A stretch of DNA of 64,000 bases from Argopecten irradians (taxonomy: Eukaryota; Mollusca; Bivalvia; Pectinida; Pectinidae), in NCBI RefSeq assembly GCF_041381155.1, contig NC_091141.1, positions 24,386,828 to 24,450,827 on the forward strand, in the 5' to 3' direction. How positions within the stretch are numbered: position 1 is the first letter of the stretch; every line of letters begins with the position of its first letter. The position numbers and the translations under genes were made by a program. The notes beneath the pieces are model-generated. The model did not search any database, was not told where the DNA came from, and saw only the letters and a list, made by a program, of their open reading frames with translations. Below are positions 3,897 to 63,390 of the stretch, piece by piece.

Positions 3897-4005
3897 GATG
3901 ACCACTAAGCTTTAAGTGGCTTTCAACTTCCGTCGCCTTCTTTACCGTATAGCTGGCTTCTTTCATTCTTTCGCGGGTCAAGCGTTTTAAAAATTTTATT
4001 GAATC
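3897..4005. repeat. Dispersed repeat fragment
   Basis: The stretch from CTTTCAACTTCCGTCGCC to TTTCGCGGGTCAA is repeated with changes at 7074-7290. The second copy ends in a GGAC tetranucleotide run. Both look like pieces of one interspersed family. Confidence 0.5.
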
Positions 4006-18300: not shown

Positions 18301-21300
18301 GGATATACAGTACATCCTCAAATGCATGATAATGGTGATAAAGAAAAAAAACTAGAACAATTTAACACAATACTATACAGTAGTGGCAGAACGTTAAACA
18401 GATGATTTATGATTTGAACTACTTCTCTACCAAATACAACCATGATCATTATCGTTAACACTCTTTCCTTTGATAACTTACAGAAAATAGCGATGTAGCA
18501 ATTGGTCGTAGAAAGCAAATAATTTGATGTCGACACACATGTGATAGATAAAAGCAAAATAAACAATGTGTTGATAAAGCAACCCTAATGATTTGTCTGA
18601 ATATTTGATATTTAGATATTTTGAAAATACGCAAATATTTTTTATTGAATACTGTATTGTATCGTTGCTTTCATTTGCAGGTGATAAATTTCGCTTCTAT
18701 TATATTCGCAGGTGATAATTTTCGCTACTAATATATTCGCGTTCAGATTAATTTCGCAAAATAAAATATCCGCAAATAAAATGTAAATAATGATATTATG
18801 TAAGTTGACCTGTATAGACAAAGCTTATTTCTTCTTTACACATTACAAGATTATTGCCCTTACGGTTAGATATCCATTGTGACGTCAGTTTTTGTTCGTG
18901 CAATTCACGTCGTTTTCACCGAAACGTGTGACGTTAAGCTCGTAAACACATGACGTCACAATCAATGCCTATCCGAAAGGCCAGATAACTTTGGAATATC
19001 CAAACACAGAATGTGCAAACGCGCGAATATATCTTCCCGCAAATTATCATTATATGGCGATTTGTTTTTCGCAAAATGAAACAACTTTATGGTAACGAGT
19101 AAATGGTATAACGATTAGGTGGATGACGAGTCCTGTCGTTTGATCTCCCTCAATGTTAACATCTTTCTTCTTAAATATGTTTGGTGTCGATTTATTTATA
19201 ACGTTTATACGTAGCTTCTGATTCGTTCATATTTCTGGATCATAACAGCAGTCATGATTGTTTCTTTACTATATGCAGTCTGTATCAGTTATGTTTCGTT
19301 ACTATATGTTATGATCAACAGACCTATTAAAAATTGTTTCAAAATGAAATACATGTAGTAATAGCAAAAGGGATGTTCCGGATGATACCCTTATATCGGC
19401 TTAACCAATACTTTTATATTCCAATAGAGAATGGTTAGTATCTTACAATACAAGCTTTATTTTGGTGCGGGACTTAGGAAAGCCGAAATAGCGAGTTTTT
19501 GCCGAGTCATCTCGGTTTTCCGTTTCGCGCACAAAAATAAAGTTGCATTGTAAAATGCTAGCCGTGCATGTGTTTATCCTGTAATGATTTCCATTCAAAA
19601 CGAAGGCAAATTGACGGTTATTTACATGGTTTCGCTCGAAGACAGACGCTTCTGAGCTTCCATGCTCAAGAAAAGATTCCTTCACTAAACTGAATGAGAG
19701 TTTACTTCTTATTACTACCGTGGGATATATATAACAGGCTTCCCAAACAGTTCCAGTAATTCTGTTCAATTTTGTAATATCACTGAAACGAAATGGAGGA
19801 AACAATATGGAAATACTCAAACAAAACTACAATAATGACTCATCAAAGAATTGCTTTACAATACACTTACGATCTCTACAACCACTGGACTATATCATTG
19901 TAAAATTGGAGGCAGCTCAGCGGAAAACATCTGAACCAATCACAGGCCTGCAAAGATTTGGTTTGAGGCGACGCCCAACATCAAAGTCACAAATTTCAAC
20001 CACAATGTTCCGTTATATAGCTCTTTTGATGTACATCAAAGGACTAAAATACCTGTTCTGTTCTGTTGCCTTCAATTTTGCTATGAGACAGTCAAGGGCT
20101 GTAGAGATTGTAAGTGATCGGAACCCCTGGAGCATCGAGAATGAAGATATATATACTTACCATCTATATGGAAAAAAAGATGAAAATAGTATGGATTCAA
20201 ATTTGAAAAAATATGCCTTGCATCTCGGTCTGTATAATACCAGTACTCTTGTTTTTCTTTTTGCTCAGCGCAGTAGTACAATCCAGTGTCCTCTAAAACG
20301 ATGACGTCATAAGAAACGTGGAAAACAAATATATGCGGTCGTGTCCTACGTCACAGTAATATAAAATGAAAAAGGTCTTACAGTACGTTCTTTGACAACT
20401 TCCATGTAGTAATGAAAAAAGTCACAGTTGTCTAGAATTATTTTTATTGTTTCACACTTTCGATGAAAAATAATTTTAACGGGATGCCAAAAAAGGAAAA
20501 AAACTAAAGTTAAAATATCTTTGAAGAAGGAGAAGACAATATAGTAAAGAGATTTATTTTTTATCAGACAAATCATATCCCACTTATATAGATATCTTAA
20601 AGAAAAGGGGAATTTTTAACAATGATTTTATTTGTTTTCATACTAGATCAGACTTTCTGATTGGCAGATCTATTGGTAAATAAATGGAATAGTACGTGTA
20701 AACGTATTTAATGTTATCATGAAGTCTGAAAAATTAATCGAAAGAATTGATGTAGCTAGTTTTTACTTCAGCGGTGTATTAAAGAAATTTTGTTTACATT
20801 CATCGTTTACACAACTAAATCATCCATATCCATCAAAAAAAATTAAGAAAAAAATAATGTGAAAGTTGTGTAAGTGCATATTTAGAATAATCAATTAAAA
20901 TATGGAAATTGGCGTGAATGTCCTTATGTGAAAGGAAAACAAAAAAATTAAGTCATAAGTATGTTATTCAAAACTACTTTAAACTTCACAGGACACATGT
21001 TCACTTTTCGCTGTTGCAGACTGCGACTGAAATGGGATTCACACCTCAAGCGATTTTTTTATTGCTACGCTGCTTGAGGCGTAGCAGTTAGGATCGGATG
21101 CAAATCTTGCAGGATAGCCATGTAGCAAGAACGCTTGAATCAGAAGGATGTTCGGTGTGTTACAAGCACTACCTGTTGAAGTAATATTAAAACTAATTAC
21201 GGAAACAGACTTTAATCTGTCCGGATTCGGACGTCTTCTTCCTGATAAAGCATGGTCACATGTGCGCTTGCATCCGTTAATTAGATTTCGGGGTAGAACA

Positions 21301-24300
21301 AGCATTCGTGGTAAAAGTATTCTGGATATGGATTTTCTAGAAATTAATCGGGAATTTAATCAAATCTGGTTCCATTTACAGATGGAACAAATATATCTGT
21401 AGTAGTATACCATGTTTACATTACTTTTATATTTCTTATTTAATTTAGATCACCATCGTGTAACATTAATAATCAGACAACTGAACATACTAAAATGCGG
21501 GATGGCAGTACATACTAAAAGCGGAATGAAAACGGACCATAGAAAAACATAGAAACATATTAGATTAAGTTCAATATTTTCTTTGCCTTTTCTCTGAGCT
21601 TAGCAATCTCTCAAATCTTTTTAATTTGTTGGAAGCAAAAGTATTATCAAAACTGTTCGTCTGCACTAGACCTGGCTACCTTGCACTAACACAAGCTTAC
21701 AAATTATAAAATGGCTTTCAACAGAACAATTAAAATTGCTAAACAATATCATCATATCATTGTTTAATTTCCATATTCTGTCCAATCAAAGAGTTAAGCT
21801 TCCGTGTAGCCCACCTAGCTTTTTGGGAAGCTAATACTTGTACTGGTATTTATATTGATAATGTGTTGTCATTTCGCCTTAGATGTTCTCGAAATAGCAA
21901 ATATACATGTATAAAATTTCACTCGAGTAAAGCGTTTAATAGTATAAGAAATGTGGAGAAGACATAACTAAGTTGTGCTAGCTTGTTCCTGATTAATTTG
22001 TACATATATTACTAAAAATATGTTTGAATCGAATCGAAAAAAATGAATCTAAAGGACAAATGTGCATATTAAAATACTAATCTATAATAAATAACATACT
22101 TTCCTGTATATTTCGAAGTATTAACGTGTCATTCTTGGTGACTTCGACCCGACTCTGGAAGTCAGTGTCGTTGTCTTTGTAACCCCCAATTACTGGTCCT
22201 AAGGTCCAGCGCCCATCTGGTGCCTTGTTCCGTGAAGAGACCCGCCACCTATACATTTTTCTGGGAACAACAGGGGGCCTTTTTACGGCTGGGTCACCAC
22301 TAGAAAAAAAACAACAATACATTCTATCATCGTTTTCATAGTTGTGCTAGAACATGCTTTAGTGACCAACTCTCTATAAAGATTACCTATTTAAAAAGAC
22401 CATAGGCCCAAAGATTATGACACAGTCTTAAATCTCAAAACTACAATTGGTCTTACAAAACGGTACGGTATGTCTGACAATAGCTATCATTGTTTCCTTT
22501 GTCCCTTTGTTGGTCTTCATAGACAGGTTTGACTGTATTTAAGCATTGATGTCACTATTTTTCAGCTTCATCATCAGTGTATGAAAGAAAGTTTGTTTTC
22601 AAACTGTGTGAATCCACATAGTGGTTTCTCAGAAAAGTTTGCAAACAAACTTAAAACAAATAGTGACACCAAATGCTTATAATTGTTTTTTCATACTTCT
22701 AAATAAAATAAGATACGTTTTAACGTACGATCGATCCCATTTACAATGGATTATTTTCCAAATCAATACGCAACGTCGTTTTGTTTGCAAACTTATGTGA
22801 GAATCTGCTACGCGGATTCATACAGTTTGCAAACATTTTTTTTCATAACCCGATGAAATTAAAAACTAATGACATCAATGCTTATAATCAATTTTATACT
22901 TTATTTGATAATATCCCAGTTTGTTTAATTACGCTTGCAATTCTGCTAGAGTCGCTGTTCAAATTAAAAAATGTAAATGTATATTGGAATTAGTTAAATA
23001 TCGATTTTTTTTCGTGTACATTCGAATTCGTTATATTTCTGATTGAAAAATATTACGAGGATTTATCACAATGTTTTGTCGGAATCATCTATGCCATTGG
23101 ACACTTGTTGATATACCATTGTCTCCATGTTTGTTACTTGCATCATAGGAAACTTCACAGACAAATATCTCGACTTTGTTATCTTTAATAGGTGCTGAAA
23201 TAGGTTTATTGTGCATTTACATCTGTGGGTAAATAAGTTCATATCCCACTGCTACCACGAACATAAACTGTTTATTATACCCTAGATTACTTAAATTTGT
23301 GATGAGAAAAAAAAATGATGTTTGACGCTTCATCAGTCATTGCTGTACATCGGAAGGGGAGATAACTTGTCGTGAAAATGGGTGGTTGCATTGCATTTCC
23401 ACGCTCCACAAGGAAATACGATGTTTTCTCTCATACCTACACGTGTAATACTGGCTGGTCTCGGGCAATACACTCACGTCGCTTGAAGCTGTATTGCATG
23501 GCTACCCATGAAATAAAGCCTCCTGACGTCATAGTGTCAACAAGATTACTATTTTCTCGGTACAATTTAAAAAAAAATCAGAAGCTAGGCTTGGTATACT
23601 TTAAAAGATACAAACAATGGACTTTGCGTCAAAAATACCAACATTTTGTGACCCTCGGGTAGAATATTACTATCCTTCATATAACATATGAAAAAGTCTT
23701 ATAATATTTCTTTTAATGTGAAATACGATGTTATAGGTCCCTGGCAGGTGATTTTTTAACTTATCACATAAACTTTTAAATGTGAGGTATAATAATATGT
23801 TTTATAAGACTTTCGCACAATATTACCCTTTCTTTATTTCTAAAATGACCGAATTGTTAGCGAGTATCTGCTAACCCATCTGCAACATATTCAGCAGTTA
23901 TTTCTTTGTCCTTTTCAGATTTATCAACTTTGGTGGTAATGTGCTAAATGTTGTTTGTCTGCTCTTTGACCAAGACCTTAGATATATTGATAAGTCTAAA
24001 AGACTTCACTTTTTTAAACATGTTTTTATTGGATCCGATTAGTGTAAACGAACCTATTTTTGCAAGGAGATAGTTCGTCTTTGAATTCAATACATTATAA
24101 GTGATGATTTATGCACTCATTGAACACAGTTACATTTTAGTTGCTTTGAGAAAATACTTACCAGTAATAACAGGGAATGGCAATGGTATCGTTGATGTTG
24201 ACAACCAAAGATAGATGAATCGGTCTTTTTTGGTGACTCATATAGTCTAACATATCATCAATCTTTTTTCGACATTCTTCGAACGGGAATCTTTCTGAAA

Positions 24301-27300
24301 AAGTACAATATTTTAGAAATACCGCTTAATAACATGCCATATGTGTAGATGTTTTAGGCGTCGTCTTTTGTTTGTTTTTGTTTTTGTTAATTTTTTTTCT
24401 AGTTTTTCTTTCTTTATTTATTTATTTATTTATTTATTTTTGTATCTGAAACCATTTTTTTTAATATTATTTCAGAAGAAATTGTACAAGACATACATAT
24501 ATAAATGGTATACAAATACATAATTAAAATCTTAATTGTTCATTTATAGAAAGGTAAAAGCAATTACATAAGAGGAAACCATGGAAACTTCGGTTGCAGT
24601 TTGTTGTAATCCTAGACGTCCTAAAGGAGTAATTAAAATTAGGAGTAATAAAAGACGGTACCGAATTCTCTGATGTCGAAAGTGAAGTCACGTTTTTCTC
24701 TGATGAGCTCGTTCAGGTATCGGTGACGGTGGGTGACCTTTTCGTCCGTTGTCATCTCAGGTAGCTGGAACGGCGGAACGTAGGAGTCCACGCCTATATA
24801 AGTTAAAACACTGTTGTGATGTCATTCATTATTATTGTACAATATCAAACAAAAGCCACAGACCTCACCTATCGTTGTATAATATGTTACATTTGGCTTT
24901 CCAATATTACCACGGAGCTGTCCAATGAACGTATTGTGTCCAAAAAGTTAAACACTGTAATAGGTTTGTAATGGACTGCCAAATCTAACATATTAGTCAG
25001 CACCAGAAGAAGGTTTTAGTAGATAAGTGATTTAAATGAGCAATGAATAATAAATACAGAGATTCAAAATCCATGTTTTTTCTCAAATATATTGCTACAA
25101 TTATATATTAGCACCTTACTTTTGGGAAAACCCATTTCATTCTTGTCATGCCTCCCTATATCCCTCATATCTCATCTCGAGATCTGTTTAACCCTCATAT
25201 TTCGAGATCTGTTTAACCCCTCGTGCCTGTAGATTTGTTCAATCCTCATCTCTCGAGACTTATTTAACCCCTCATGTATCTAGAACTATCTAACTCCTGA
25301 TGTCTCTAGATCTGCTTAACCCCTCATATCTCGAGATTTATTTAACCCCTCATGTCTCGAGATCTGTTTAAACATCTCATATCGCGATATTTGTTTAAAC
25401 CCTTATATCTCGAGACCTGTTTAACCCTTCATATCTCTAGATCTGTTTATCCCTCATATCTCGGAGATCTCTTTCACCCCTCGTATCTCTAGATTTTTTA
25501 ACCCCTCATATCTCGAGGGAAGCTGGCTTTATCTTAACTTCATATAGCATGACCACCTAACCAGCAAACTTGTGTAAACAAAAATAAGGCTTATCGGGTA
25601 AGGCCACCAAAGGATCCCGATTAACATCCTTGGTTTATCAATAGTTTACATCATTTGTTTCGCGATTACAGCAATATCTTGCGAAGGCGAGAAAATATCA
25701 ATACCACAAAAAAAACGGCTATACGGTAATCATTCCATGAAAACAACCGACTATACTACAAACGTACCACGAAAATAATCAATTATACGGTAGTCGAAAG
25801 TCAGGATATATACGGATATATTAGATATGCTCTAATTCTTTTCCGATAGCCTCCGGCTTTCGGGGGTTGAGATAGCATTTCCGCTCCTGCGCACTAACCT
25901 TGCCTCGTTTTAAAGAGAAACTATTTATATGTAAATGAGCCAGTCTACCTGCATGCGGATCTCCTGAAAACCCCATCTTTTCGCTTTGAGCTGCACGACA
26001 GACAACACGTGTTCCCAGTTCGGGTTACTGGTAAGTGTTTGTGGTTTTTTATGCCTCGCGAGCCAGTTGTTATTCGTTCTTATTTGATACTGCGGTAGCA
26101 TGCTATTATTTTTCGTGGTGTTTACGTTGTGTTTGTTTGTTTCAGGTGTGTTTGTCGTCCTTTTTGCTTGTGGTCTTTTAGTCATGGACTCCGACCACGA
26201 CGACTCATTGTCAATTTCTGACAATAATATCCATGTCCTCGATGAGGATATTTCACCACAGGGCTCCGCGGGTGCCCATGTCTTTGCTAACGTCAATGTG
26301 GTGGACGATACCGAGCCGCCGGCTCAAAATACTCGAAATAAGACTGCAGGTGGCAAGACTCAAAAACGGAAGGGCTCTACCGGGAGACTTTCATCCGTTT
26401 ACAAAATCCCGAAGCTCGCTGAGCGTAAAACGGGTTCAAAAAAGGCTGAAAATGTGGAGAACAGCGATATGTCAGCTGTATTAACTGCTATTAATAGTCT
26501 TACGGCTGCGATTGGTCAGCGGGACTTTGCGCAGGCGCAGTCGTCCGGAAACGCATGTAATGCTACTTCCGCTTTCGTTTTGGAGAGTGATAATTCGGAG
26601 CATGAGATTGACGCTCCGGTACGTCAGAATGTTCGTTCAGCGAACTTTTCGTTTTTTGATTCTGAGTGTGGGTCAGTCGCTGAGGCAGCGGACTGTCCTG
26701 AGGAGAATTTTACCTTCCAATTGGCGGACATTTTTGATAAGAAAAAACTCGGGCCTGCGGTGTGTCAGTCAAAGCCAAAAATTGCTGAGGACATTACTAC
26801 GGCAGTTCGTACGAATGCTGATGTTTCAGAGCTGAAACAGCTGTACAAGATTCCTAAAAATCTCGAGTGCTTGCTTCCGCCTAGAACTAATAGTGAAGTT
26901 TGGGGTATGGTCTCACCCCAGTTCCACGGACGAGACAGATTAATGCAGGATCTGCAGGAATTACTGGCCCACTCTTTAACGCCAATTATGTTCATGATTG
27001 AGAAGTTAAGACTCAAGGATCTGGATATGAAGGAAATACAGGTTCTGCTGAACAATGCGGTGAGTCTCCTCTGCAATTTACATTATGAAATGTCAGTCAA
27101 GAGACGGTTCATGTTGCGTAGTGGCATTAAACACTCTCATTTACAGAGCTTGTGTAACTCTGAAACGCCGATAGGGGCAGAACTATTTGGTGACAATGTA
27201 GCCAAACGTATTAAAGACCTGGATGAGGTACACAAGGCCACGTACAGACGCAATTCGGCATCAAAAAACGGACAGTGGTCCGGTCGGGGTCAACAGTGGT

Positions 27301-30300
27301 CCGGCCGGGGATATTACAACAGAAGGGGCCAGAGAGGGCGATACAGGAGAGGTCGCCGACAATCATTCCCCAACCAGAGTCAGGACAAGGCCAAGGCTTC
27401 CACCCAGTAGAGGTGAGTAAAAATCTTCCTTCCGGCAAAATATCTCGTTGTCTGCCAGTTTGGCAGAAGTTAACATCTGACCAGTGGGTCCTTGATACAG
27501 TTCAGGGTTATCATATTGAATTTACAGAGATTCCAATTCAGTCTACTGTTCCTAAACCCATAGAGTTCTCTGATGAGGAGAAGCTTATCATTGACAATGA
27601 GGTGACTGCCATGCTTAGCAAAGGTGCTATTGAGCTTTGTGAACACGAGTGGGGCGAATTCATTTCAAATATTTTCATTGTGCAAAAGAAAAACGGTAAA
27701 TATCGCCCCGTCATTAACTTGCGTTATCTCAATGAGTCAGTCCTTTATCAACACTTTAAACAGGAAACACTGGAGACTATTTTAGAAGCTATCCAGCAGG
27801 GCGACTTTTTTTACCTCAGTTGATCTAAAAGATGCTTATTTCAGTCTTGCTATTTCTCCTGGAGATAGAAAATTTTTGAAATTTCTTTGGAGGGGCCAAC
27901 TTTATCGTTTTTGTTCCCTGCCATTTGGACTCGCCAGTGCCCCTCGAGTGTTCACAAAGGTTCTGAAGCCTGTATACAGCTCTTTGCGAAGCAGGGGAGT
28001 TAACACCTTTTATTATATAGATGACTCTCTTACTAGAGCACAAGAAAAAGAAAAGTGCTCTCGTGATACTCTAAGCTTAACATCTACGTTAGAGTCTGTA
28101 GGTTTTCAGGTGAATACTGAAAAATCTGTTCTGAATCCAGTCCAGGTGATCTGTCATTTGGGCTATATTTTAGACTCTGTACAATTTAAGGTCTTTCTGC
28201 CTGAAGATAAGGTGGTGAAAATTTTGAATAAATGCCAAAATATTGTATCTGCGGATAGCCCACTGGTTAGGCAATTGGCTTCACTTATTGGCAGTCTGAC
28301 TTCAGCATTCAGGGCAGTTTTATTGGGCCCATTTTACTACAGATCTCTTGAATCTGATAAGGTTTCAGCCCTCAATGATTCGGGGGATGATTATGATTCT
28401 CCCGTCACACTCTCAGAGGAGAGTATTTTAGAAGTTAGGTGGTGGCAGGAGAATTTGAAAACTATGAATGGTAAGCCCATACGCCCAGTTAAGCCTACTG
28501 TGTTCTTGACTACAGATGCATCTCTTGATGGTTGGGGTGCGGTTTGTGAATGTACCAATCAGCATGGTACGAAAACGATTTCAGGTGGCTGGAAGGCTGC
28601 TGAGGCCCGTAGACATATTAATTTTTTGGAGCTTAAGGCCATTCAATTAGCTCTTCAAACCTTCTGTCGAGATTTAAGACAGGTACATGTCGCTATTAAG
28701 AGTGACAACACATCTGCTATATCCTACATCAATAACTTGGGGGGCAGACAGAGTGCATTGTTTTACCTTTCTCGAGAGATCTGGTTGTGTGGTGCTGGAA
28801 CAGAGACATTTATTTATCTGCAGCACATATCCCTGGGGTGGCTAACGTTCAGGCTGATTACTTATCTCGAGAATCTCCAAGCCAAACAGAATGGAGTCTG
28901 AGTTCGGCCATTTTTGGTAGGGTCTGTCAACAATATTTTGTACCTGACATTGATCTTTTTGCATCACGGGTCAATTGTAAGCTTGGTCGTTATGTATCCT
29001 GGACTGTTGACCCAGGGTCAGAATATGTAGATGCTTTTTCAATATCATGGACTTCATTTAGGCCCTATATTTTCCCTCCATTCTGTTTGATTGGGAGAAT
29101 TCTTCAGAAATTATGGTCCGACAGGGTTGAACAGGCTATAATTATTGTCCCACATTGGACTGCTCAAACATGGTTCCCTAATCTGCTTGATATGTTAATT
29201 AGGTCGCCGGTCCGGCTACCAGTGCAGTCTGAGGTGGTTACATGTCCTCATGATGGTCGTCCTCATCCACTTTACAGAAAGCTTCATCTGACCGCCTGTC
29301 TCGTATCAGCCAATCCCTCAAGCATAAAGGCCTATCAAGGGCAGCTCAGGACCTGGTCGCAGGGTCGTGGAGGTCAGGAACTAACAAGGCTTACAGCTTG
29401 GCGTGATTATCTCATTTGGTGTAATCGACAACAAGTTAATTGTGAGCTGCCGACTGAGAAGGACATAGCTGATTATCTCATCAGCTTACACACAGAAGGG
29501 AAGTCTTATAGTGTTTTGAACACACATCGTTCAATGCTGTTTCAGACATTACAATTGATTTCTGGACGTGTTTTTGATAGTATTATTATTACCAGGATTA
29601 TGAAGGGCTTATATAACATCAATCCTCCGAAGCCTAAATATCAGGTTACCTGGGATGTAAGTGTTGTTTTAGCATATATTAGAACTCTTTACCCTTTAGA
29701 AGCACTTTCTCTGAAGGACTTAACCTTTCGGTTGGTTATGCTTCTGGCACTTACTACAGCCCAACGTGCTCAGACCTTGGTTTCATTAAGTCTGGATCAT
29801 ATGCAGGACATTACGGATGGTTGTATTTTTCATATTGTGACTCTGTTAAAAACATCGGGTCCAGGAAGGACTCAGCCCAGTGTTTGTGTTAAGAAATTTG
29901 TTGACGCAGAACTTTGTGTGTACCGTACGTTGGTGCATTATATATCTGTTACTAGTGGTCTCAGGAAGACGCGACAACTTTTGATGTCATATGTTACCTT
30001 TAGGGCGGTTAGTACCGCTACTCTAGCGCGGTGGATTCGTACAGTGTTATCCAGTGCAGGTGTTAGCTCCGCTTTCCGAGCTCACTCCACTAGGAGTGCA
30101 TCTACTTCGGCCGCTTTCCATGCTGGCGTGCCACTTCATGACATTTTTCAGGCAGCTAATTGGACAAATTCATGTACTTTCGCCACCTTCTATCGAAGGG
30201 ACGTGGTGGTTGCCGACAGTCAGTTTGCGGACGCAGTGCTCTCGCGCGGACAGGTTACTTGAGAAGGTCTTGCACTGATGGTATAATGTTGACCTAGTTA

Positions 30301-43379: not shown

Positions 43380-43970
43380 TCATAAAATGTGTTTCAGGCT
43401 CATGAACTGGAAATCCAATGCCGCTGCATGGTAACCATTACCATTAAGCCTACCTACCAGCTCTTCAACTGTTTCAGTCTCTGCAATTGCTTCAGCCTCT
43501 GCAACTGTATCAGCCTCTGCAACTGCTTCAGCCTCTGCAACTTTATCAGTCTCTGCAACTGCTTCAGCCTCTGCAACTGTATCAGTCTCTGCAACTGCCT
43601 CAGCCTCTGCAGCTTCTTCATCTTTTATCCCTTCAACTTCTACGACTCCTTCAACAACATCCACTGGTTCTAAGAAACATGCTGTATTTAGGGTGCCACT
43701 TCTCCAAACAGAGGCAAATGCTATGCCTGAAGTAGTGTGCCGAGTTTGTGGTGATCGATAGTGCAGAAACCTTGTTTTGGCTAGGTTGTAGACACAAGAA
43801 TCTAAAGACCAAAAAAAAAAAAGACAGGACTGTAACTTTTGGCTGCACCAGAACTGCATTGGCCTATACTATGCCGATGAGAGGAATCTCAGTAAAATTC
43901 CATTCCTTTGCCCAAAACATAGTTCAAAAAATAAAAATTTTGTATGATGCAAGTTGAAATTAAATCTTGT
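43380..43970 (+). pseudogene. Disrupted Ser/Ala-rich and PHD-like zinc-finger fragment
   Basis: A plus-strand frame reads through a Ser/Ala repeat, then KKHAVFRVPLLQTEANAMPE and VVCRVCGD before a stop. Further on, in other frames, come FWLGCRHKN and then WLHQNCIGLYYADERNLSKI plus PFLCPKH. The order CxxC, WxGC, WxHxxCxG, CPxH resembles PHD-type fingers. The pieces fall in different frames around an A-run, so this looks like a decayed host or DNA-transposon-derived gene. Identity is uncertain. Confidence 0.4.
43479..43615. repeat. 18-bp minisatellite, about 7 copies
   Basis: The unit GCTTCAGCCTCTGCAACT alternates with GTATCAGTCTCTGCAACT-type variants, giving an 18/36-bp periodicity. All three plus-strand frames and a minus-strand frame are open, producing spurious Cys/Asn- or Glu/Ala-rich translations. 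Confidence 0.85.
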
Positions 43971-52847: not shown

Positions 52848-55800
52848 CTGTGAGTTAAAACAACATCAGCATGTTACACTTACGGTAGTTACAAGAGAGA
52901 GTAAAGTGTAGATGGATTACTGAAAGCTAGCTTTTGTTCGCCTGTGATATATTTATTTTTGCGAATTTTACATCAAGTTAAATTCATGAAAGTTTGCCTA
53001 TTCGAATTTTAAAATATCTTCAACAATTCTTGCAGTTTAATTCAGTGCTGTAGCTTCTGTTACCATTACTGTAAAAGATAGAGCAAGGGAATGAGCTAAA
53101 GACCCTAGTTTGATTTCTTTAGATCTACTCAGCAGGAATGTATGTTTCACTGTTCTATGTAATATACTGTACCTCCTGGTCGTCGCCATTTTCTTTGGCC
53201 GAGCAGCTATGCGTAGGAGACATGCCCGTCTCTGATGTGTATGAGGACGTACTATCTGTGCTCACTTTACGCTGATTGAGGGCGTCGCCTCGTGGACCCA
53301 ACATTAGATTCTGTAGGTGTTCACACACACGTCGGAATCTACGAGATGGCCCTATAAATACAAAATATATGTATCGTAAATCACAAATCAAAAGAAAACT
53401 CTGAAAAAAAAATATTTTGACATGAAAATGATTCGAAATGTAGTTTCTGTTTTAATGTGATAAAATTTATCTGGTGTAAATTATATATGAGATTTTATGA
53501 TATCTAATTTTAGCCCAGAATCAAGCTTTCTGTGAAACCTTCAGGAAACAATTTGAAATTTCAAAAATATATCATTGCGATCTTAGTTTTTCAGAAATAT
53601 TTTGAAAAAAAAATAGAACCAATGAAATGGATCATGCCGAATGAACATGCTCAATAATTGCTGTTTTGGTGGTTATTTTCAGAGGGTAAAATGTTCGCAA
53701 TTTTCACTTCAAATGGTCAAATGGTGAAACTTAATATTCTCCACTTATTTGCTATGTGTCTTCAAATATCTTTTTCAATCAGCCACAAAGTTGTTAAAAA
53801 AAACAAGAGTCAAGGGATATCTCCACATGGTGGAAAAAACATTAAAACGTCTTGAGTACTATCTAAGGAATTGTAGCAACAAGACTTCTTAAAGGACAAG
53901 AAAGAAGTCTTCCAATATCATTTGACCTTGACCTACTGACCTGATATTAGGGTGAAGGTCAGACAGAACATATTACACTCCGATGGACCACCCCCATGAG
54001 TGGCAGGTGTGATGTCCACCTGAAATCGGACATTTCTTGAAAACATGGAAGAGCTTCCCGACCGTCTGTATTCCGCCCGAAACGTTGTCGTGGATACCAC
54101 ATTGTGAGATAGATCTGCAGTCTGTTGATTGTAAAAAACAAACATTTTCACTTTTATGGACTTTTCAGTGATATTGTTAATAAGTTTATATAAGATAACT
54201 GAATCCAGAAATTTAAATACAGTAGATCAAAGGTAAAATGGACAACTTTCTTTTGTGTGTGTGTCGCTTTCACAATTATGATTAATTCGCAAATGTATAT
54301 TTTCACGAATTGCTATTTACTTTGATAATATTGAGAGATATTTCAAATCAAGTTTTGAATCTGAAAAAGTCAATTCTTAAGAACTTGATTTGATAATAAA
54401 ATCGCAAAATTTAGCAACCGTAAAAGAACGTTGGTTAACAGGCCAACAAGGAGACAGAACTCATCTTTTCTGGAGAGCAAGGATGCTTTCAGGCTAGAGT
54501 GTGGATTAAGTAAAAAAAAATAATCATAATCATTTGACCATGATTTATTTGACAATGACTTACAGAGAAGAATGCATATATGCATATATGAGGTCGGCCT
54601 TGACTTGACTTATTTGACAATGACTTACAGAGAAGAATGCATGAATAATGTCTGCCTTGACCTGACTTATTTGACCATGACTTACAGAGAAGAATGCATG
54701 TATGAGGTCGGCCTTGACTTGACTTATTTGACCATGACTTACAGAGAAGAATGCATGAATAATGTCTGCCTTGACCTGACTTATTTGACCATGACTTACA
54801 GGGAAGAATGCATGTGTGATGTCTGCCTTGACCTGATTTATTTGACAATGACTTACAGAGAAGAATGCATGTATGAGGTCGGCCTTGACTTGACTTATTT
54901 GACAATGACTTACAGAGAAGAATGCATGTATGAGGTCGGCCTTGACTTGACTTATTTGACCATGACTTACAGAGAAGAATGCATGTGTGATGTCTGCCTT
55001 GACCTGATTTATTTGACAATGACTTACAGAGAAGAATGCATGTATGAGGTCGGCCTTGACTTGACTTATTTGACAATGACTTACAGAGAAGAATGCATGA
55101 ATAATGTCTGCCTTGACCTGACTTATTTGACCATGACTTACAGAGAAGAATGCATGTGTGATGTCTGCCTTGACCTGATTTATTTGACAATGACTTACAG
55201 AGAAGAATGCATGTATGAGGTCGGCCTTTACTTGACTATTTGACAATGACTTACAGAGAAGAATGCATGTATGAGGTCGGCCTTGACTTGACTTATTTGA
55301 CCATGACTTACAGAGAAGAATGCATGTGTGATGTCTGCCTTGACCTGATTTATTTGACAATGACTTACAGAGAAGAATGCATGTATGAGGTCGGCCTTGA
55401 CCTGACTTATTTGACCATGACTTACAGAGAAGAATGCATGTGTGATGTCTGCCTTGACCTGATTTATTTGACAATGACTTACAGAGAAGAATGCATGTAT
55501 GAGGTCAGCCTTCACTTGACTTATTTGACAATGACTTACAGAGAAGAAGAATGATGTATGAGGTCGGCCTTGACCTGACTTATTTGACCATGACTTACAG
55601 AGAAGAATGCATGTGTGATGTCTGCCTTGACCTGATTTATTTGACAATGACTTACAGAGAAGAATGCATGTATGAGGTCAGCCTTCACTTGACTTATTTG
55701 ACAATGACTTACAGAGAAGAATGCATGTATGAGGTTGGCCTTGACTTGACTTATTTGACCATGACTTACAGAGAAGAATGCATGTGTGATGTCTGCCTTG

Positions 55801-58800
55801 ACCTGATTTATTTGACAATGACTTACAGAGAAGAATGCATGTATGAGGTCGGCCTTGACCTGACTTATTTGACCATGACTTACAGAGAAGAATGCATGTG
55901 TGATGTCTGCCTTGACCTGATTTATTTGACAATGACTTACAGAGAAGAATGCATGTATGAGGTCAGCCTTCACTTGACTTATTTGACAATGACTTACAGA
56001 GAAGAATGCATGTATGAGGTTGGCCTTGACTTGACTTATTTGACCATGACTTACAGAGAAGAATGCATGTGTGATGTCTGCCTTGACCTGATTTATTTGA
56101 CAATGACTTACAGAGAAGAATGCATGTATGAGGTCGGCCTTGACTTGACTTATTTGACAATGACTTACAGAGAAGAATGCATGTATGAGGTCGGCCTTGA
56201 CCTGACTTATTTGACCATGACTTACAGAGAAGAATGCATGTGTGATGTCTGCCTTGACCTGATTTATTTGACAATGACTTACAGAGAAGAATGCATGTAT
56301 GAGGTCGGCCTTTACTTGACTTATTTGACAATGACTTACAGAGAAGAATGCATGTATGAGGTCGGCCTTGACTTGACTTATTTGACCATGACTTACAGAG
56401 AAGAATGCATGTGTGATGTCTGCCTTGACCTGACTTATTTGACAATGACTTACAGAGAAGAATGCATGTATGAGGTCGGCCTTGACCTGACTTATTTGAC
56501 CATGACTTACAGAGAAGAATGCATGTGTGATGTCTGCCTTGACCTGATTTATTTGACAATGACTTACAGAGAAGAATGCATGTATGAGGTCAGCCTTCAC
56601 TTGACTTATTTGACAATGACTTACAGAGAAGAATGCATGTATGAGGTCGGCCTTGACTTGACTTATTTGACCATGACTTACAGAGAAGAATGCATGTGTG
56701 ATGTCTGCCTTGACCTGATTTATTTGACAATGACTTACAGAGAAGAATGCATGTATGAGGTCGGCCTTGACTTGACTTATTGGACTATGACTTACAGAGA
56801 AGAATGCATGTATGAGGTCGGCCTTGACCTGACTTATTTGACAATGACTTACAGAGAGAAATGCATGTATGAGGTCGACCTTGACCTGACTTATTTGACC
56901 ATGACTTATACAGAGAGGAATGCATGTATGAGGTCGACCTTGACCTGACTTATTTAACCATGACTTATACAGAGAGGAATGCATGTATGAGTTCGGCCTT
57001 GACCTGACTTATTTGACAATGACTTATACAGAGAGGAATGCATGTATGAGGTCGGCCTTGACCTGACTTATTTAACCATGACCTACAGAGAGGAATGTCT
57101 GTAAAAGGTAGGCCTTGACCTCACTTATTTGACTTTTACTTACAGAGAGGAATGCGTGTATGAGTTCGGCCTTGACCTGACTTATTTAACCATGACCTAC
57201 AGAGAAGAATGCATGTAAGAGGTAGGCCTTGACCTCACTAATTTGACCATGACTTACAAAGAGAAATGCGTGTAGGAGGTCGGCCTTGACCTCACTTATT
57301 TGACCATTACTTACAGAGAGGAATGCGTGTATGAGGTCGGCCTTGACCCCACTTATTTGATCATGACTTACAGAGAGAAATGAGTGTAGGAGGTCAGCCT
57401 TGACCTCACTTATTTGACCATGACTTACAGAGAGGAATGCATGTATGAGGTCGGCCTTGACCTGACTCAGCTGTTTGTCCTGGGCCATAATAAAGTGATG
57501 TTCCTCCCGATCTGCACCCATCAGGGCTCCAAACCACGATTTCTTTGTCATCCTAAAACAGGATTTCATATGTCATCAGGTAATTCCAAAGTTTTTCGTT
57601 TAAAAAGTTATTACAGAGTTATCAGCCCTTGTGGGTATAGGTATTGATTGTGATGTCATGTGTTTTACTTTTCAGAGACAATAGTGTGAGTTGAGCTCAC
57701 AAAATAATGATGTAACAATAGATACGCACCTAAAAGGGAGGTAACTCTGTAATATGCAAAAACGGAATAAGTAGACTGTACCATGCATTGATCTGGACAA
57801 GTCCATTATGGTTTACAGTAGTGCAAGGGTATTAATTAGTATGACAAGTATTTTAAAATGGTCTTCTAACTATATTTCTGATACAGCTTTTTTTTATACT
57901 ACTTCAATTAGCAATGCTAAAAGTACCTGTGACCAGCTAATGAACTTATTGTATACTGCTTCAACATAAGGGAAACACTCAACTTTGGGAGATTTCATTA
58001 CTTTACTTCTATTATGACTAGTATATAAGGACATTCAATCATTGAACATGTCACTATATCATACGTATTACGCCTTTTAAAGATGCTCCACCGCTGACAA
58101 ATGGTATTTTTTTCGCTATCAAAAACAGCTGCAGGCAATTTAGTATTTTTCTTCAGTTACAAAAGTTACTTACTTTACACCATTACCACCATCGAAAAGT
58201 TTGAGCTTCTAATTTTACTTCAAGACAAAAATTTTAAAAATAATTAATTGCATCCAGAAAAAATTCTGTGGTACTATGTCCTATATGGAATGAAGTACTG
58301 ATTGTGCATGCACCAAAAGTAAAATATATCATTTTATATAATGTTTTGTGTTAAATAAGACATACTTATATCATTTTATATAATTTTTTGTGTTAATAAG
58401 ACATATTTATATCATTTTATATAATTTTTTGTGTTAATAAGACATATTCATACACGATTTAACACCAGTTATTGTTTAAATGATGAGTATCGTTTATGCC
58501 CTGTCGGCGATGGAGCATCTTTAATGATCTTCAAAATTTAACACCACTTTTATCTTTAGACCCATCCATCTATGAAAATGATGAAATTCAAAAGTGTTGC
58601 TTTATTTTAACCATAAATATCAGCAAAATACATCAAATTATTTGATTGATAAGTGTCAAAGAAAGATGAAAAATAAATTGCTCTTGACCAACAAACAAAA
58701 TCCATCAAAGGACTTAAGTCTGAAATAACCTAAAAAAAAGTGGAGCAAAATAAAAAGCCTCATTAAGTCTCTCTCAATTCTACTGCATTAAACCATTGTA

Positions 58801-61800
58801 TTCATAAGTACAATTAATTAAGGGATAAGAATTATCTATTTGGCATTTCAAGATTTTATACAAAGCTATGAATTTATATCTGAAACAAATTTTTATTTCT
58901 GAAGGGTTTTAGTTGAAACTTATAGTAAACCAGAAAGCAACTGATAGTTTTTGGAACTTGGTCTATCAAGGTCATCCATGGAAATACCCAAGGTCAAACC
59001 TCAAGGTCAAGGACTTACTCTGGTGAAGAGTCAGGAGTCATAGACAATGTACTTTCTTCAGTAGGCACTGAAAGCATACAAAACAGGCATTAGTAAATAT
59101 AGCAATGAAAAAGGTCAAGAGGTCAAACCATACAAAATAGGCATTAGTAAATATAGCAATACAAATGTCAAAAGTTCAAACCATATGTACATAACAGGCA
59201 TAAGAAGCAATGAAAAGGTCAAAAAGTCAAATCACTTATACCAGGCATTAGTAACAATAACAATGAACAGGTCAAAGGTCAAACTACAATGAACAAGTAT
59301 TAGTAATTATAGAGGTGAAAGGTCAAACACTATAAAACAAGGATATGGACAATTCATAACAAAGGCCAAAACAATTACTGAACATATGTACTAATATATC
59401 ATATGGAGCAACAAAAATGAGTTAATGGAATTTTAAGCCACACTGAATAGTAATTTACTGATCTAAAAAAAAGGTCAAAAGTTCAAGATATCTAAATCAT
59501 TGCACTTATGAATACCAGATTGGTCAAAACATTGGATCAGAATTGAAGAAATATGATCAGAATTGAAGAAATTTCATAAAAACAATTTTCAAAAACAAAT
59601 CCTGTATTACTTAAGTACAATTAGTAAACAGAGAAAAGAAACATTACCGTACAAACAAAACAGAAACTAATAATAATGAACATTTAGCAAGAGAAGTCCA
59701 AATTAAAATAACCTAAAATTAGTCCATATCTCACAAGATCTTTGATGGATCTAGACACCCCCAGTTAACAACTGAAGAACCTTTTTAAGTCAAATGAAAC
59801 ATGAAACTTTTCTGTATTTTTCTCTTCTTGGAATTCGCACAACTTGCACCATAAAAACAAGAAACATGAGCAAAACCCCCAAGCATTTTCTTAATAATAG
59901 TGCATGCTAACAATCTCATTTATTTTTTCAAAATCCAAAGCCTGTAAGCAGAGTGGTTTGTAAAATCACCTTCAATAACTGAAATCACATGTATCTATAG
60001 AGACCAAAAGTGACCTTCATGTAAAGTCTGAGAAACATTGCATCATGATAACAAACTTCAATTTGTATAGCCATTGGACTACGGTTGGTCCATGTATCAC
60101 AACTGTAGCAACATTGTAACTCCTTCACCCCTCCAGACACATTTGGGTTCTTCTAAATCAAAGACTAGACCAGTCCATTATATAATTTTAGGGTTGAATG
60201 ATGGTGTGTCTAAAACAGAAAAGTCACACCCTTTATACCACAATTAATGATTTAAGAAACAACAAAACAAGAATAGGTCAAAACATAAAACTGTTTGTTA
60301 TTTCTGTGTTAGTCAACAATATCAGGAACCCTGCAAAATCTGATACAATTTTAGTAAAACTAATACCATATTCACCGTAATCAATGCTCTCATTTCACTT
60401 TTAATCTTCCCTTGAACCCTACCACTGTGAAGGAATAAATAACTTCTAATTATAAACTGTAGTTGTTCTGTATTATTGTATCAAAATTCCTACTTTTTTT
60501 GGATTGATAATATCAAATATAAAATTTGGTGGCAATTAAAGATATAAATAGTAGAACCTGCCTTAGCAACAACTCTGCACAACGACAGCTTACATTATAA
60601 TTGATACATGTACCAAGTTAACAATTTCATCACATTTTTGACCTGTGTATTTTCCTCTTTATTCCTTAGTTGACCTTTATTAAAGACAGACTTGGCAATC
60701 AAGTGTTTTCTTGATACATAAAAATACCTTTTTTCATCAAAAACTACTGTATAGTCTTATGATAAGTAGGTTATGTGCTTTTTGAGTCTTGAGCAGTAAT
60801 TATGGCTAATAGGTTAACAATCATTCTAATACCAATCAACTTTCAGCTTTGGGTAGATAAAGAATATGACTGATGAACCATTCCAACAGTTGACATGCCA
60901 GCCAGCCAACTAACCAATCAGCCAATGGATACAAAACCATGTGACAGGCCAGCTAACCAATCAGTCAATGGCTACAACACCATGTGACAGGCCAAGTAGA
61001 ATAAAGTCACCTGCTAAGTAATCCATCTCCAGTATAAAACCATTGGTGTAGGCAATACCTTGTAATTTTCGCCTGTGAAAGCGTGGTGAGCCGAGAAAAC
61101 TGTTTTTGATGGTATGTAGCCGAGACTTCCAGGCTGTCGACTGTATACTGGGGGACCCAGGGGGCGTGGCAGAGGGGCTGTGGGAGGGGGTACCTCTCAC
61201 AGGTAGGCGGGGGCTCACAATGGGGGAGGAGCTAGGACTGCCAGTCAAACTTGCCTTCCGTCTGAAATAAACAATATACAGAATACAGTTATAAGAAATG
61301 TTGGGTTTTTTTCAGAAAAATTGTATTTGGTTCACACAATCTTTAATTTTGTTTTGTAAACAAAACTCAACAAACATGACATTCTGGAGAAATTTCACAA
61401 TCATCCACTAGCTGTACTTTTTTAGACTTAGAGATGTTTTGTTCTTTTTTATTAACAAAAAAACAGTTTGAGCTAAGATATTGCCATGGCAACAAAATGA
61501 CATTTAGTTTGTAACGAAAATAATACAATTGAGAAGATATCTTTAAAATTATATATTGTTAACCTTTTTTCACAATTTTCATGACTCATTACAAATGATG
61601 TGTAAAAGAAAGTAATCCTTATAATGACAATTTGACCATTGAACTATATACAATACTTCATTATCATAGTAACTTTTTTGACACATGGTTAGTACATTGT
61701 CAACTAAACAACAACAAATTTATGGTTTAATAGTTGAAAGCAAAATTTCAAAATTAGAGATTTCAATCAAAATAATGTTTTTTTTTTCTAAAATAAAAAT

Positions 61801-63390
61801 GTAAAAATTTAAAACTTGTGTTTGACATCTTCAGCATCTTACTCCTCTGGTTGAGATTTCTCTGTCACACCATTTGAGGGAGTGGAAGTTCTATAAGTCT
61901 CATCCTCAAGGGGGTGGAAGATTCTATTAGTCTCACCCTCGAGGGAGTGGAAGATTCTAAGAAGTTTCACCCTGGAGGGGTTGGAGGATTCTATTAATCA
62001 ACTTACACTTGCTGAACGGCCAAAGCTCTACGAGATGCAACTGGTGAACCTTCACTTATACTTCCTAGGGACAACCTACTAAAGCAAGCAGGGTTAGTTA
62101 GGTTAGCAAGTTAGTCAACGGCAGGTTAGTCAACAGTACAGGTTAATACAGTAAGTCAACATCGAGTAATGGTTAAAAAGTATCTTCCAGGAATTCCTAA
62201 TACCATTAGTCAACATAGAGTTATGGTAAATTCAGTTAGTCAACATCGAGTAATGGATAATAAGTATCTTCTAGGAATTCCTAATACCGTTAGTCAACAT
62301 CGAGTAATGGTAAATCCAGTTAGTCAATATCGAGTAATGGTTAATTTAGTATCCTCCCGGAGTTCATAAATACTAGCTGTCAGTCAACATCGAGTAATGG
62401 TTAATTCAGTAAGTCAATATGAAGTATCGGTTAATACAGTATTTTCTAGAAATTTTTTATACATTAAGTCAACACTGAGTAATTATATGGTAAATTCAGT
62501 ATCAAAGAGGTTTTAATACTTTACTGTAAACCAACTTATCTCTGCATACAATTAAATTTTACATACATCACAGGTAATGAGAAATCGTGAAAATTCATTG
62601 TTGAGAAAATGTTTCAAATGCATGTTAAGTAAAACCAAAACCGTCTGATGATTGCGTAATTAAATCATTGTGAAAAAGTCATTATGTGTGAAAACACAAA
62701 ATTAAGTCGCCGCAGAAATAAATTTGTTTACAATCAGGGCCTTTGTGATACATATGAGACATCAATAATAGTCAGTGATTTTCTGTTTTATACTCCATTA
62801 ATAAATGCAGTTAAAATATCCATTCTCATCAGGTGTATGATTTCTTAGAATGAAGCAGAACTGCATGGGGCTGGACATACATTTTTCTGCTACTGCGTTT
62901 CGATAATATCATTTTCTGTTTTCAAGAATGATCATATAACACGAAAGTAGTATCAATAAAGTGTATATATTCTGTTCTACATAAACTTTCTACAAAGTCA
63001 AAATTTTGTCCCATGCACATGCAACAAACAGTTACTTCTGTTGTTAATACATATTTTAGTATGTTAATCATTAGTGTACATTTTATAGAGTTACAGCCCC
63101 TATGGCTTGGTTTTGATTGTGACGTCATCATTTTGTAAGCAAATGTTACGTCATTTTCTCTAAAAAAAAATGTGACATCTCCCAAAAACATGGCGCAACA
63201 AATCAAAATCTATAATCATACCCACAAGGGCAAATGCCTCTAATATGCAAATTCATTGCATCATCTCACCTGTAAATATTTATTCGGTTTTTTTTTGTTA
63301 AAGACAGTAAAATTAAAGTGTGTGAACAATGTACTTACCTCGGCTGACCATTTAACTGGACAGCGTCCACTCTTTTCCTCGGTGGATCAG
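52731..63390 (-). CDS. BRSK: BRSK/SAD-1 serine/threonine kinase, 3' part (spliced locus, continues past right edge)
   Basis: Minus-strand exons in order: 63339-63390, 62007-62078 (or 62075), 61059-61261, 59019-59067, 57429-57552, 53941-54121, 53173-53351, 52731-52847. All junctions are GT-AG and in phase. The protein matches the C-terminal half of BRSK1/2 by recall of the family: [95 protein letters not shown] kinases are LKB1-activated AMPK relatives acting in neuronal polarity and presynaptic vesicle organisation. This half carries the Ser/Pro-rich linker and the KA1-type autoregulatory, lipid-binding region. The kinase and UBA parts are outside the window. Confidence 0.93.
53173..53351 (-). 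CDS. BRSK: BRSK exon: end of KA1 region
   Basis: The exon lies between TATTTATAG and CAGGAG|GTACAG. It encodes [20 protein letters not shown], matching the vertebrate GPSRRFKRVVETIQAQL helix. A Ser/Thr-rich stretch follows ([20 protein letters not shown]). Confidence 0.9.
53941..54121 (-). CDS. BRSK: BRSK exon: KA1 beta-strands
   Basis: The exon lies between CAATCAACAG and TATCAG|GTCAGT. It encodes [20 protein letters not shown], then [20 protein letters not shown] and [10 protein letters not shown]. Vertebrate BRSK has the parallel PSLSHSVISQTSFRAEY and KFQVDITY...YSVTFTLLSG. It is the acceptor exon for the junction that the 57-bp array has duplicated. Confidence 0.92.
54545..57470 (-). repeat. 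57-bp minisatellite made of a BRSK exon-intron border, about 51 copies
   Basis: On the minus strand each unit is AGTCAGGTCAAGGCCGACCT, then CATACATGCATTCTTCTCT, then GTAAGTCATGGTCAAATA. The first 39 nt equal the end of BRSK exon 57429-57552 and the last 18 nt equal the start of its intron. The array begins at that exon and fills most of the intron. Nearly every unit keeps the GTAAGT donor. The few exceptions are near the exon end, where units are most diverged. Both strands stay open over long stretches because the period is 19 codons. Unit variants (GACATC or GACCTC types, CATTG or CATGG) recur in ordered groups of two or three. Confidence 0.95.
57429..57552 (-). CDS. BRSK: BRSK exon: start of KA1 region, donor of the duplicated border
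   Basis: The exon lies between CTGTTTTAG and CTCTCT|GTAAGT. It encodes [20 protein letters not shown] and [21 protein letters not shown], parallel to vertebrate KKSWFGNFI...KDKPLSSIKADIVHAFLS. The last 39 nt seed the 57-bp array. Reading on past the donor stays open for about six repeat-like units to a stop near 57186. Confidence 0.93.
57650..58070 (-). other. BRSK intron, nothing distinctive
   Basis: AT-rich intronic sequence between the KA1 exon and the TTAA-type MITE. No features were recognised. Confidence 0.5.
58081..58520. mobile_element. MITE with TTAA target duplication (copy 2)
   Basis: TTAA at 58077-58080 and 58521-58524 flanks inverted ends AGATGCTCCACCGCTGACA and CTGTCGGCGATGGAGCATCT. 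It contains three tandem copies of a segment with ATCATTTTATATAATTTTTT and GTGTTAATAAGACATA (58327-58447), absent from copy 1. It lies in a BRSK intron. Confidence 0.8.
59019..59067 (-). CDS. BRSK: BRSK short linker exon
   Basis: A 49-nt exon between TATGCTTTCAG and CCAGA|GTAAGT encodes [17 protein letters not shown] (first and last codons split), matching vertebrate VPTPEEMSNLTPESSPE. Phases 1 in and 2 out agree with its neighbours. Confidence 0.9.
59068..59345. repeat. Degenerate 50-55 bp tandem repeat beside BRSK exon
   Basis: About five units contain AGGCATTAGTAAATATAGCA and AAAGGTCAAAGGTCAAAC. The array begins almost at the acceptor of the 49-nt exon and decays away from it. Confidence 0.75.
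59346..60890 (-). other. BRSK intron, no exon seen
   Basis: AT-rich sequence with short AAGGTCAAA motifs that echo the neighbouring array. No coding exon is needed here, because the flanking exons join in phase. Confidence 0.55.
60893..60993. repeat. 48-52 bp duplication near BRSK exon
   Basis: CCAACTAACCAATCAGCCAA with TGGATACAAAACCATGTGAC is followed by a second copy, CTAACCAATCAGTCAATGGC with TACAACACCATGTGAC. It lies about 65 bp from the donor of exon 61059-61261. Confidence 0.7.
61059..61261 (-). CDS. BRSK: BRSK linker exon with [17 protein letters not shown]
   Basis: The exon lies between GTTTATTTCAG and TACAAG|GTATTG. It encodes [20 protein letters not shown], a Ser/Pro-rich run ([15 protein letters not shown]), then [20 protein letters not shown] and RKLQ. 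The last block is nearly identical to vertebrate BRSK and diagnostic of the family. Confidence 0.95.
61870..61992. repeat. 34-bp minisatellite, about 3.5 copies
   Basis: The unit GAGGGAGTGGAAGATTCTAT plus TAGTCTCACCCTC repeats with changes and stops about 15 bp short of the donor of exon 62007-62078. Confidence 0.8.
62007..62078 (-). CDS. BRSK: BRSK linker exon with NAGNAG acceptor
   Basis: The exon encodes [20 protein letters not shown] and VQQ, parallel to the vertebrate [20 protein letters not shown] stretch. The acceptor is TTGCTTTAGTAG: starting after the first AG (62078) adds one Ser, and after the second (62075) removes it. The donor is CAAGT|GTAAGT. Confidence 0.88.
62090..62480. repeat. 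30-60 bp tandem repeat beside BRSK exon
   Basis: Units contain GTCAACATCGAGTAATGGTT or GGTAAATTCAGT, some with an extra GTATCTTCCAGGAATTCCTA block. The array starts just upstream (gene sense) of the acceptor of exon 62007-62078. Confidence 0.8.
63339..63390 (-). CDS. BRSK: BRSK linker exon (most upstream in window)
   Basis: The exon lies between TTTGTTACAG and GCCGAG|GTAAGT. It encodes [16 protein letters not shown], a basic linker. Phase 2 out fits the next exon. The upstream partner is beyond 64000 or in the unresolved right margin. Confidence 0.8.

What the first reader, a model, noticed from the sequence alone, without database searches (positions are those of the whole stretch)
54545..57470. 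A minisatellite built from a gene's own exon-intron border: about 50 tandem 5' splice sites in BRSK
The 57-bp unit is exactly the last 39 nt of BRSK exon 57429-57552 plus the first 18 nt of its intron. It is amplified about 51 times in place, in the sense direction. Nearly every unit keeps CTCT|GTAAGT. A conserved neuronal kinase transcript would thus carry dozens of equivalent donors competing for one acceptor at 54122. I know of no described system of this form. It could set splice choice, stall the spliceosome, or act as a U1 snRNP sink within the nascent RNA.
Basis: partly seen in the sequence, partly recalled or inferred. Interest (0 to 1): 0.93.

Follow-up and report, generated by a model that had tools for sequence, protein, structure and literature searches.

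The report
Minisatellite of repeated BRSK splice donors
In this animal's BRSK kinase gene, the end of one exon and the start of the next intron have been copied about 50 times in a row, so the intron carries dozens of look-alike splice sites; this is a real and striking natural splicing experiment, but the human CBS gene has a similar smaller one and the sequence gives no good sign that the copies are kept for a purpose.

Summary
On the minus strand the last 39 nt of BRSK exon 57552-57429 plus the first 18 nt of its intron make a 57-bp unit, repeated as 50 further full copies and a partial one (57428-54534). There are 51 sense donors including the real one; 46 of 51 read GTAAGT. BRSK identity is firm: PDB 4yom E 7.4e-36, Pfam KA1_BRSK, six exons joining into one open frame.

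The claim that no such system is described fails: human CBS carries a 31-bp VNTR, c.1444_1467+7(16_21), i.e. 24 nt of exon plus 7 nt of intron, 16-21 copies.

Functional readings are unsupported. The donor is only mildly less variable than other parts of the unit, and exon-derived changes look neutral (12 nonsynonymous, 5 synonymous). The 57-nt unit is a multiple of 3, so donors 1-5 keep BRSK in frame, but a TAA in unit 5 gives a premature stop from donors 6-51.

Best reading: a passive minisatellite, with the exon's own donor normally chosen. No RNA or cross-species data were available. Unexpected: 5 of 8 tandem arrays here lie within 30 nt of a BRSK splice junction.

The parts
57429..57552 (-). 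BRSK exon (124 nt), first part of the KA1 domain; its last 39 nt (57467-57429) are the exon-borne copy of the unit
54564..57428 (-). 50 full tandem units, each starting with a 5' splice-site copy
54534..54563 (-). partial last unit with the 51st donor; holds the distal intron breakpoint (AATCATGGTCAA)
57186..57188 (-). TAA in unit 5 that ends the BRSK frame for anything spliced from donors 6-51
56853..57029 (-). units 8-10 with a TA insertion in the donor (GTATAA)
53941..54121 (-). next BRSK exon (middle of KA1), using the acceptor AG at 54123-54122
57531..57577 (-). about 25-bp imperfect direct duplication across this exon's own acceptor
   Evidence: TRF score 66; 0.019% of window 25-mers match the exon start as well, the copy itself and its shifts included
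59019..59067 (-). preceding BRSK exon ([16 protein letters not shown])
59071..59312 (-). 54-bp array abutting the acceptor of exon 59067; holds 4 TACTAAT branch-site-like motifs and a pyrimidine stretch
62106..62483 (-). array 28 nt before the acceptor of BRSK exon 62078-62007; 5 TGACTAAC branch-site-like motifs
61876..61994 (-). 33-bp array starting 13 nt after the last base of exon 62078-62007

Best explanation
It is a passive minisatellite seeded at the exon-intron border of BRSK. An exchange or slippage between two similar 12-13 nt stretches 57 nt apart (AGTCA-GGTCAA in the exon, AATCATGGTCAA in the intron; inferred) duplicated the last 39 nt of the exon with the first 18 nt of the intron, and unequal exchange then expanded and partly homogenised the copies. 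Because each copy starts at the donor, donors were copied as passengers. In the cell I expect the spliceosome to pick mostly the first donor, which defines a normal 124-nt exon with the acceptor at 57553, and to leave the array in a long intron. Leakage to donors 2-5 would add 19, 38, 57 or 76 residues, that is one to four extra copies of a KA1 helix; leakage to donors 6-51 would give a premature stop and probably NMD. Shown: anatomy, donor sequences, frame and stop arithmetic, edge-versus-core divergence. Inferred: duplication route, donor choice, NMD.
For: Unit is exactly 39 nt of exon plus 18 nt of intron, 51 boundary GTs. The exon breakpoint and the distal intron breakpoint share AGTCA-GGTCAA/AATCATGGTCAA; 0.6% of window 14-mers match the exon breakpoint as well. 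Edge-diverged, core-homogenised pattern: 13.5% mean divergence in units 1-7, 6.7% in full-length units from 13 on, with block lags of 3, 8, 11 and 19 units. Neutral change in the exon-derived part of units 1-12: 12 N to 5 S distinct changes, expected S fraction 0.24, P 0.40. Five of 51 donors lost GTAAGT. The array is open in other frames too (sense 490, 313, 208 codons; antisense 481, 111, 225), so the long BRSK-frame ORF is no sign of coding. The window is rich in such arrays: 11 arrays, 5,695 bp, of which 2,807 bp without this one.
Against: Donor columns are among the less variable (4 of 57 windows as low or lower over units 1-50), so weak selection is not excluded. Donors 3 and 6 pair better with U1 than the authentic one (-7.0 against -5.4 kcal/mol), so leakage may be sizeable. 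From recalled minigene work on duplicated donors, equivalent sites can favour the intron-proximal one, the opposite of what I predict. Arrays crowd BRSK splice junctions more than chance (5 of 8 within 30 nt, random mean 2.29, P 0.0235, post hoc), which plain random growth does not predict.
Confidence: 0.62

Rival explanations
1. Coding length polymorphism: donors 1-5 are used in a mixture, so BRSK isoforms carry 0-4 extra 19-residue copies of the KA1 helix ([19 protein letters not shown]-like), varying with allele.
For: The unit is 3n; the frame stays open for donors 1-5; units 1-4 have no stop; donor 3 pairs better with U1 than donor 1.
Against: N:S in changes present in units 1-4 is 8:3, as expected without selection (P 0.52). 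Changes such as D to Y and S to F hit the helix. The other frames are open as well.
Confidence: 0.17
2. Regulatory decoy or U1 sink: U1 bound along the array delays or blocks excision of this intron or lowers BRSK output by NMD, as pseudo-5' splice sites do in the Drosophila P element.
For: 46 of 51 donors are intact; donors 6-51 all yield a premature stop, which for donors 7-51 lies 99-2622 nt before the junction. Pseudo-donors that hold U1 and block a real donor are established in the P element (PMC7776569, passages) and competition with a cryptic donor promotes intron retention in VWF (PMC8706089, passages). Longer CBS VNTR alleles are reported with lower CBS activity (PMC5188458, passage).
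Against: No clear selection on the donor, donors not unusually unpaired, P-element repression needs auxiliary proteins whose sites were not sought here. Sites of equal U1 pairing occur about 4.4 per kb anyway; in the array they are roughly 3-4 times denser, not unique.
Confidence: 0.12
3. Assembly inflation: a shorter array expanded, or its copy order altered, by the assembler.
For: No reads or second assembly could be examined. Several unit types recur exactly (24 distinct among 50).
Against: No two adjacent core units are identical (0 of 37 pairs), and the edge units grade from exon-like to core type, as in a real array.
Confidence: 0.07

Closest known systems
Human CBS 31-bp VNTR, c.1444_1467+7(16_21) (Lievers et al. 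2001, original not held)
   Same: Unit is the end of an exon plus the start of its intron, tandemly repeated in place across the exon 13-intron 13 border (PMC2630376 and PMC1395315 and PMC5188458, passages).
   Different: 31 bp, not a multiple of 3; 16-21 copies against 51; polymorphism and an activity association are reported there. That some repeat donors are used in CBS mRNA is recalled, not seen in a call.
Drosophila P element IVS3 pseudo-5' splice sites
   Same: Extra U1-binding donor copies next to a real donor (PMC7776569, passages).
   Different: Two pseudo-sites in the exon with bound PSI/hrp48 regulators; here tens of copies in the intron and no known regulator.
Tandem genomic duplication with splice signals (Rogers model; ATP2A1; Schizosaccharomyces genes with 24-bp AGGT repeats; potato RdRp)
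   Same: Tandem copies carry splice signals (PMC4974935, passages).
   Different: Those create new introns; here an old border is copied and no new intron is evident.
CBS 844ins68
   Same: Duplication of an intron-exon junction that leaves two competing splice sites; one is strongly favoured (PMC2630376, passage).

Membership tests
Minisatellite | head-to-tail array of 10-100 bp units, many copies | tested here: met
   57 bp x 50.5; 50 full units
Minisatellite | copy number varies between individuals | not testable with these tools
   one sequence only; no genome held
CBS-type exon-intron border VNTR | unit spans the exon end and intron start | tested here: met
   39 nt exon + 18 nt intron
CBS-type exon-intron border VNTR | each unit carries a donor copy in sense orientation | tested here: met
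   51 of 51 boundaries keep GT, 46 of 51 GTAAGT
CBS-type exon-intron border VNTR | length polymorphism linked to gene output | not testable with these tools
   no population or RNA data
P-element-type regulatory pseudo-5' splice sites | extra donor copies close to a real donor | tested here: met
P-element-type regulatory pseudo-5' splice sites | bound regulators and regulated intron retention | not tested
   needs RNA and protein data
P-element-type regulatory pseudo-5' splice sites | sequence constraint on the pseudo-donors | tested here: inconclusive
   4 of 57 windows as low or lower over units 1-50, 6 of 57 in the edge units, 17 of 57 in the core
[quoted passage not shown]
   206 AGs in the array, 4 of them with 60% or more pyrimidine upstream and a pyrimidine before AG; usage unknown
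BRSK (SAD) kinase | BRSK KA1 domain | tested here: met
   4yom 7.4e-36, 5iri 2e-34; KA1_BRSK on exon 54121-53941 54.3 bits against a cutoff of 27, and on exon 57552 piece 26.9 bits, just under it
BRSK (SAD) kinase | kinase domain | not tested
   expected upstream, beyond the exons found; not searched for

The most novel reading that the evidence does not exclude
This BRSK gene has had its splice signals repeatedly turned into minisatellites: a 51-donor array after one exon, a 4-copy branch-site/pyrimidine array before the preceding exon, a 5-motif branch-site array before a third, and a duplication across the acceptor of the 51-donor exon. If arrays are preferentially born or kept at splice junctions in this genome, they would form a class of copy-number-tunable splicing elements that set BRSK isoform mix or output.
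Probability: 0.1. Interest if true: 0.85.

Novelty: new member of a known kind. Interest (0 to 1): 0.5.

Why it matters
A transcript with 51 nearly identical donors facing one acceptor tests, in nature, how a spliceosome picks among equal 5' splice sites: exon definition predicts the first, intron-proximal models the last. Because the unit is a multiple of three and a stop lies in unit 5, each choice has a readable product. It also shows the CBS-type border VNTR is not a human oddity, and it sets a warning for gene predictors that may call dozens of false exon ends here.

Tried and rejected
Coding reading of the whole array: rejected, because other sense and antisense frames are also long and open and N:S is neutral for units 1-12 (the 12 edge units of 50; core units were left out because block copying makes their changes non-independent).

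Homology of unit and exon beyond 39 nt: not supported (1,329 of 5,000 shuffles score as high).

RNA-structure shielding or exposure of donors: no signal (donor phase rank 31 of 57 for 20 core units).

Mini-exon reading (each unit an exon with its own AG): weak, 4 of 206 AGs in the array pass a loose pyrimidine test.

Nuclear-receptor-type element reading: AGGTCA occurs 39 times in the array and 43 times outside it, but TCAAGGTCA occurs 0 times in the array and 7 times outside; dropped.

Junction-hugging arrays: 5 of 8 within 30 nt (random mean 2.29, P 0.0235), 6 of 8 within 70 nt (P 0.0103), but direct overlap with a border is not enriched (2 of 8, random mean 1.92, P 0.64). Post hoc; arrays of period 15 or more and TRF score 50 or more in 53000-62600, two neighbouring rows merged, 15-bp rows inside the big array left out, 11 borders.

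Relatives: unit pattern in viral contigs 0 matches; KA1 peptide, no confirmed relative in viral contigs or genome contigs, as expected for collections without animal genomes. Ten paper searches ran; beyond CBS they showed me no other border VNTR, but I read only listings and passages.

Full report
Gene. The minus strand of 53351-62078 holds six C-terminal BRSK exons: 62078-62007, 61261-61059, 59067-59019, 57552-57429, 54121-53941 and one starting at 53351 whose end I could not fix; joined, they read as one open frame. A 120-residue peptide from the KA1 exons matches human-type BRSK2 (4yom, 7.4e-36) and BRSK1 (5iri, 2e-34) KA1 domains. Pfam KA1_BRSK hits the 54121-53941 exon at 54.3 bits and the 57572-57429 piece at 26.9 bits, just under the cutoff of 27. 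The species is not known to me; a mollusc is a guess from recalled repeat motifs.

Array. TRF gives 57 bp x 50.5 copies. A wrap-around alignment gives the exon-borne 39-nt unit, 50 full units and a 30-nt partial unit. All 51 boundaries keep GT; 46 keep GTAAGT, 2 have GTAGGT, 3 have GTATAA. The authentic donor TCT|GTAAGTCA has a U1 duplex energy of -5.4 kcal/mol; donors 3 and 6 reach -7.0 because of GTAAGTAA. Outside the array 271 minus-strand GTs and 272 plus-strand GTs score -5.4 or better, about 4.4 per kb.

History. Units 1-7, next to the exon, are the most diverged (mean pairwise 13.5%); full-length units from 13 on differ by 6.7% and show block copying with low distances at lags 3, 8, 11 and 19. 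24 distinct sequences occur among 50 units, and no two adjacent core units are identical (0 of 37). The exon copy is identical over 39 nt to unit 7 and differs by 1 to 6 nt from the other 49 full units. The likely seed is a 12-13 nt imperfect match between the exon breakpoint and the distal intron breakpoint; 0.6% of 14-mers in the window match the exon side as well, so this is suggestive only.

Constraint. Over units 1-50 the nine donor columns carry 4 variant cells, and 4 of 57 nine-column windows carry as few or fewer; by alleles 8 of 57. In edge units 1-12: 6 and 9 of 57. In the core: 17 and 31 of 57. These counts leave out the TA insertion shared by units 8-10, which damages the donor. 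So a weak constraint is possible but not shown. In the exon-derived part of units 1-12, 12 distinct nonsynonymous and 5 synonymous changes are seen against an expected synonymous share of 0.24 (P 0.40).

Consequences. Donors 1-5 add 0, 57, 114, 171 or 228 nt and keep the frame open to the next exon. Donors 6-51 run into the TAA of unit 5 (57188-57186), 42 nt before the junction for donor 6 and 99-2622 nt for donors 7-51. By the usual 50-55 nt rule (recalled) donors 7-51 would feed NMD. Six of 50 units have a stop in their own frame (5, 7, 8, 9, 10, 39). The array frames are long in several registers, so openness is not evidence of coding.

Donor choice. I expect exon definition across a 124-nt exon to favour donor 1; this rests on general knowledge, and classic duplicated-donor work (recalled) can point the other way. 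No RNA evidence was available.

Precedent. PMC2630376 names the CBS repeat c.1444_1467+7(16_21), 31 bp (passages); from that notation 24 nt are exonic and 7 intronic. PMC1395315 (passages) places it at exon 13-intron 13, and PMC5188458 (passages) says more repeats go with lower CBS activity.

Neighbouring arrays. Around the same gene a 54-bp array with 4 TACTAAT motifs abuts the acceptor of exon 59067; an array with 5 TGACTAAC motifs ends 28 nt before the acceptor of exon 62078; a 33-bp array starts 13 nt after exon 62078-62007; and an imperfect 25-bp duplication spans the acceptor of the array's own exon. Five of 8 arrays lie within 30 nt of a junction (random mean 2.29, P 0.0235), but overlap itself is not enriched. 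The test was made after seeing the pattern, in one gene.

Verdict. Real, striking, most likely passive; a new member of the CBS kind of exon-intron border minisatellite, and a good natural test of 5' splice-site choice.

Noticed in passing
59071-59312 and 62106-62483 (minus strand): Two arrays just upstream of BRSK acceptors multiply branch-site-like motifs: TACTAAT x4 and TGACTAAC x5.
   Followed up: partly
57531-57577 (minus strand): The 25 nt before the acceptor of the 51-donor exon resemble the first 25 nt of the exon, as if both borders of this exon had been duplicated.
   Followed up: partly
26088-30262 (+): Retroelement with reverse transcriptase, RNase H and a tyrosine-recombinase-like (Phage_integrase) domain, DIRS/Ngaro-like (the name is recalled).
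   Followed up: partly
43435-43761 (+): Open frame with an 18-bp coding repeat (SASAT-like) ending in VCRVCGDR, which looks like the start of a nuclear-receptor DNA-binding domain (motif recalled).
   Followed up: no
22077-22346, 20081-20350, 11454-11741 (minus strand): Open frames that look like immunoglobulin-type exons, e.g. DTGLYYC and DTGLYSC motifs (motif recalled, not searched).
   Followed up: no
2862-3904 and 25174-25517: Other sizeable minisatellites (31/62/252 bp and 26/131 bp periods), so tandem arrays are common in this genome stretch.
   Followed up: no
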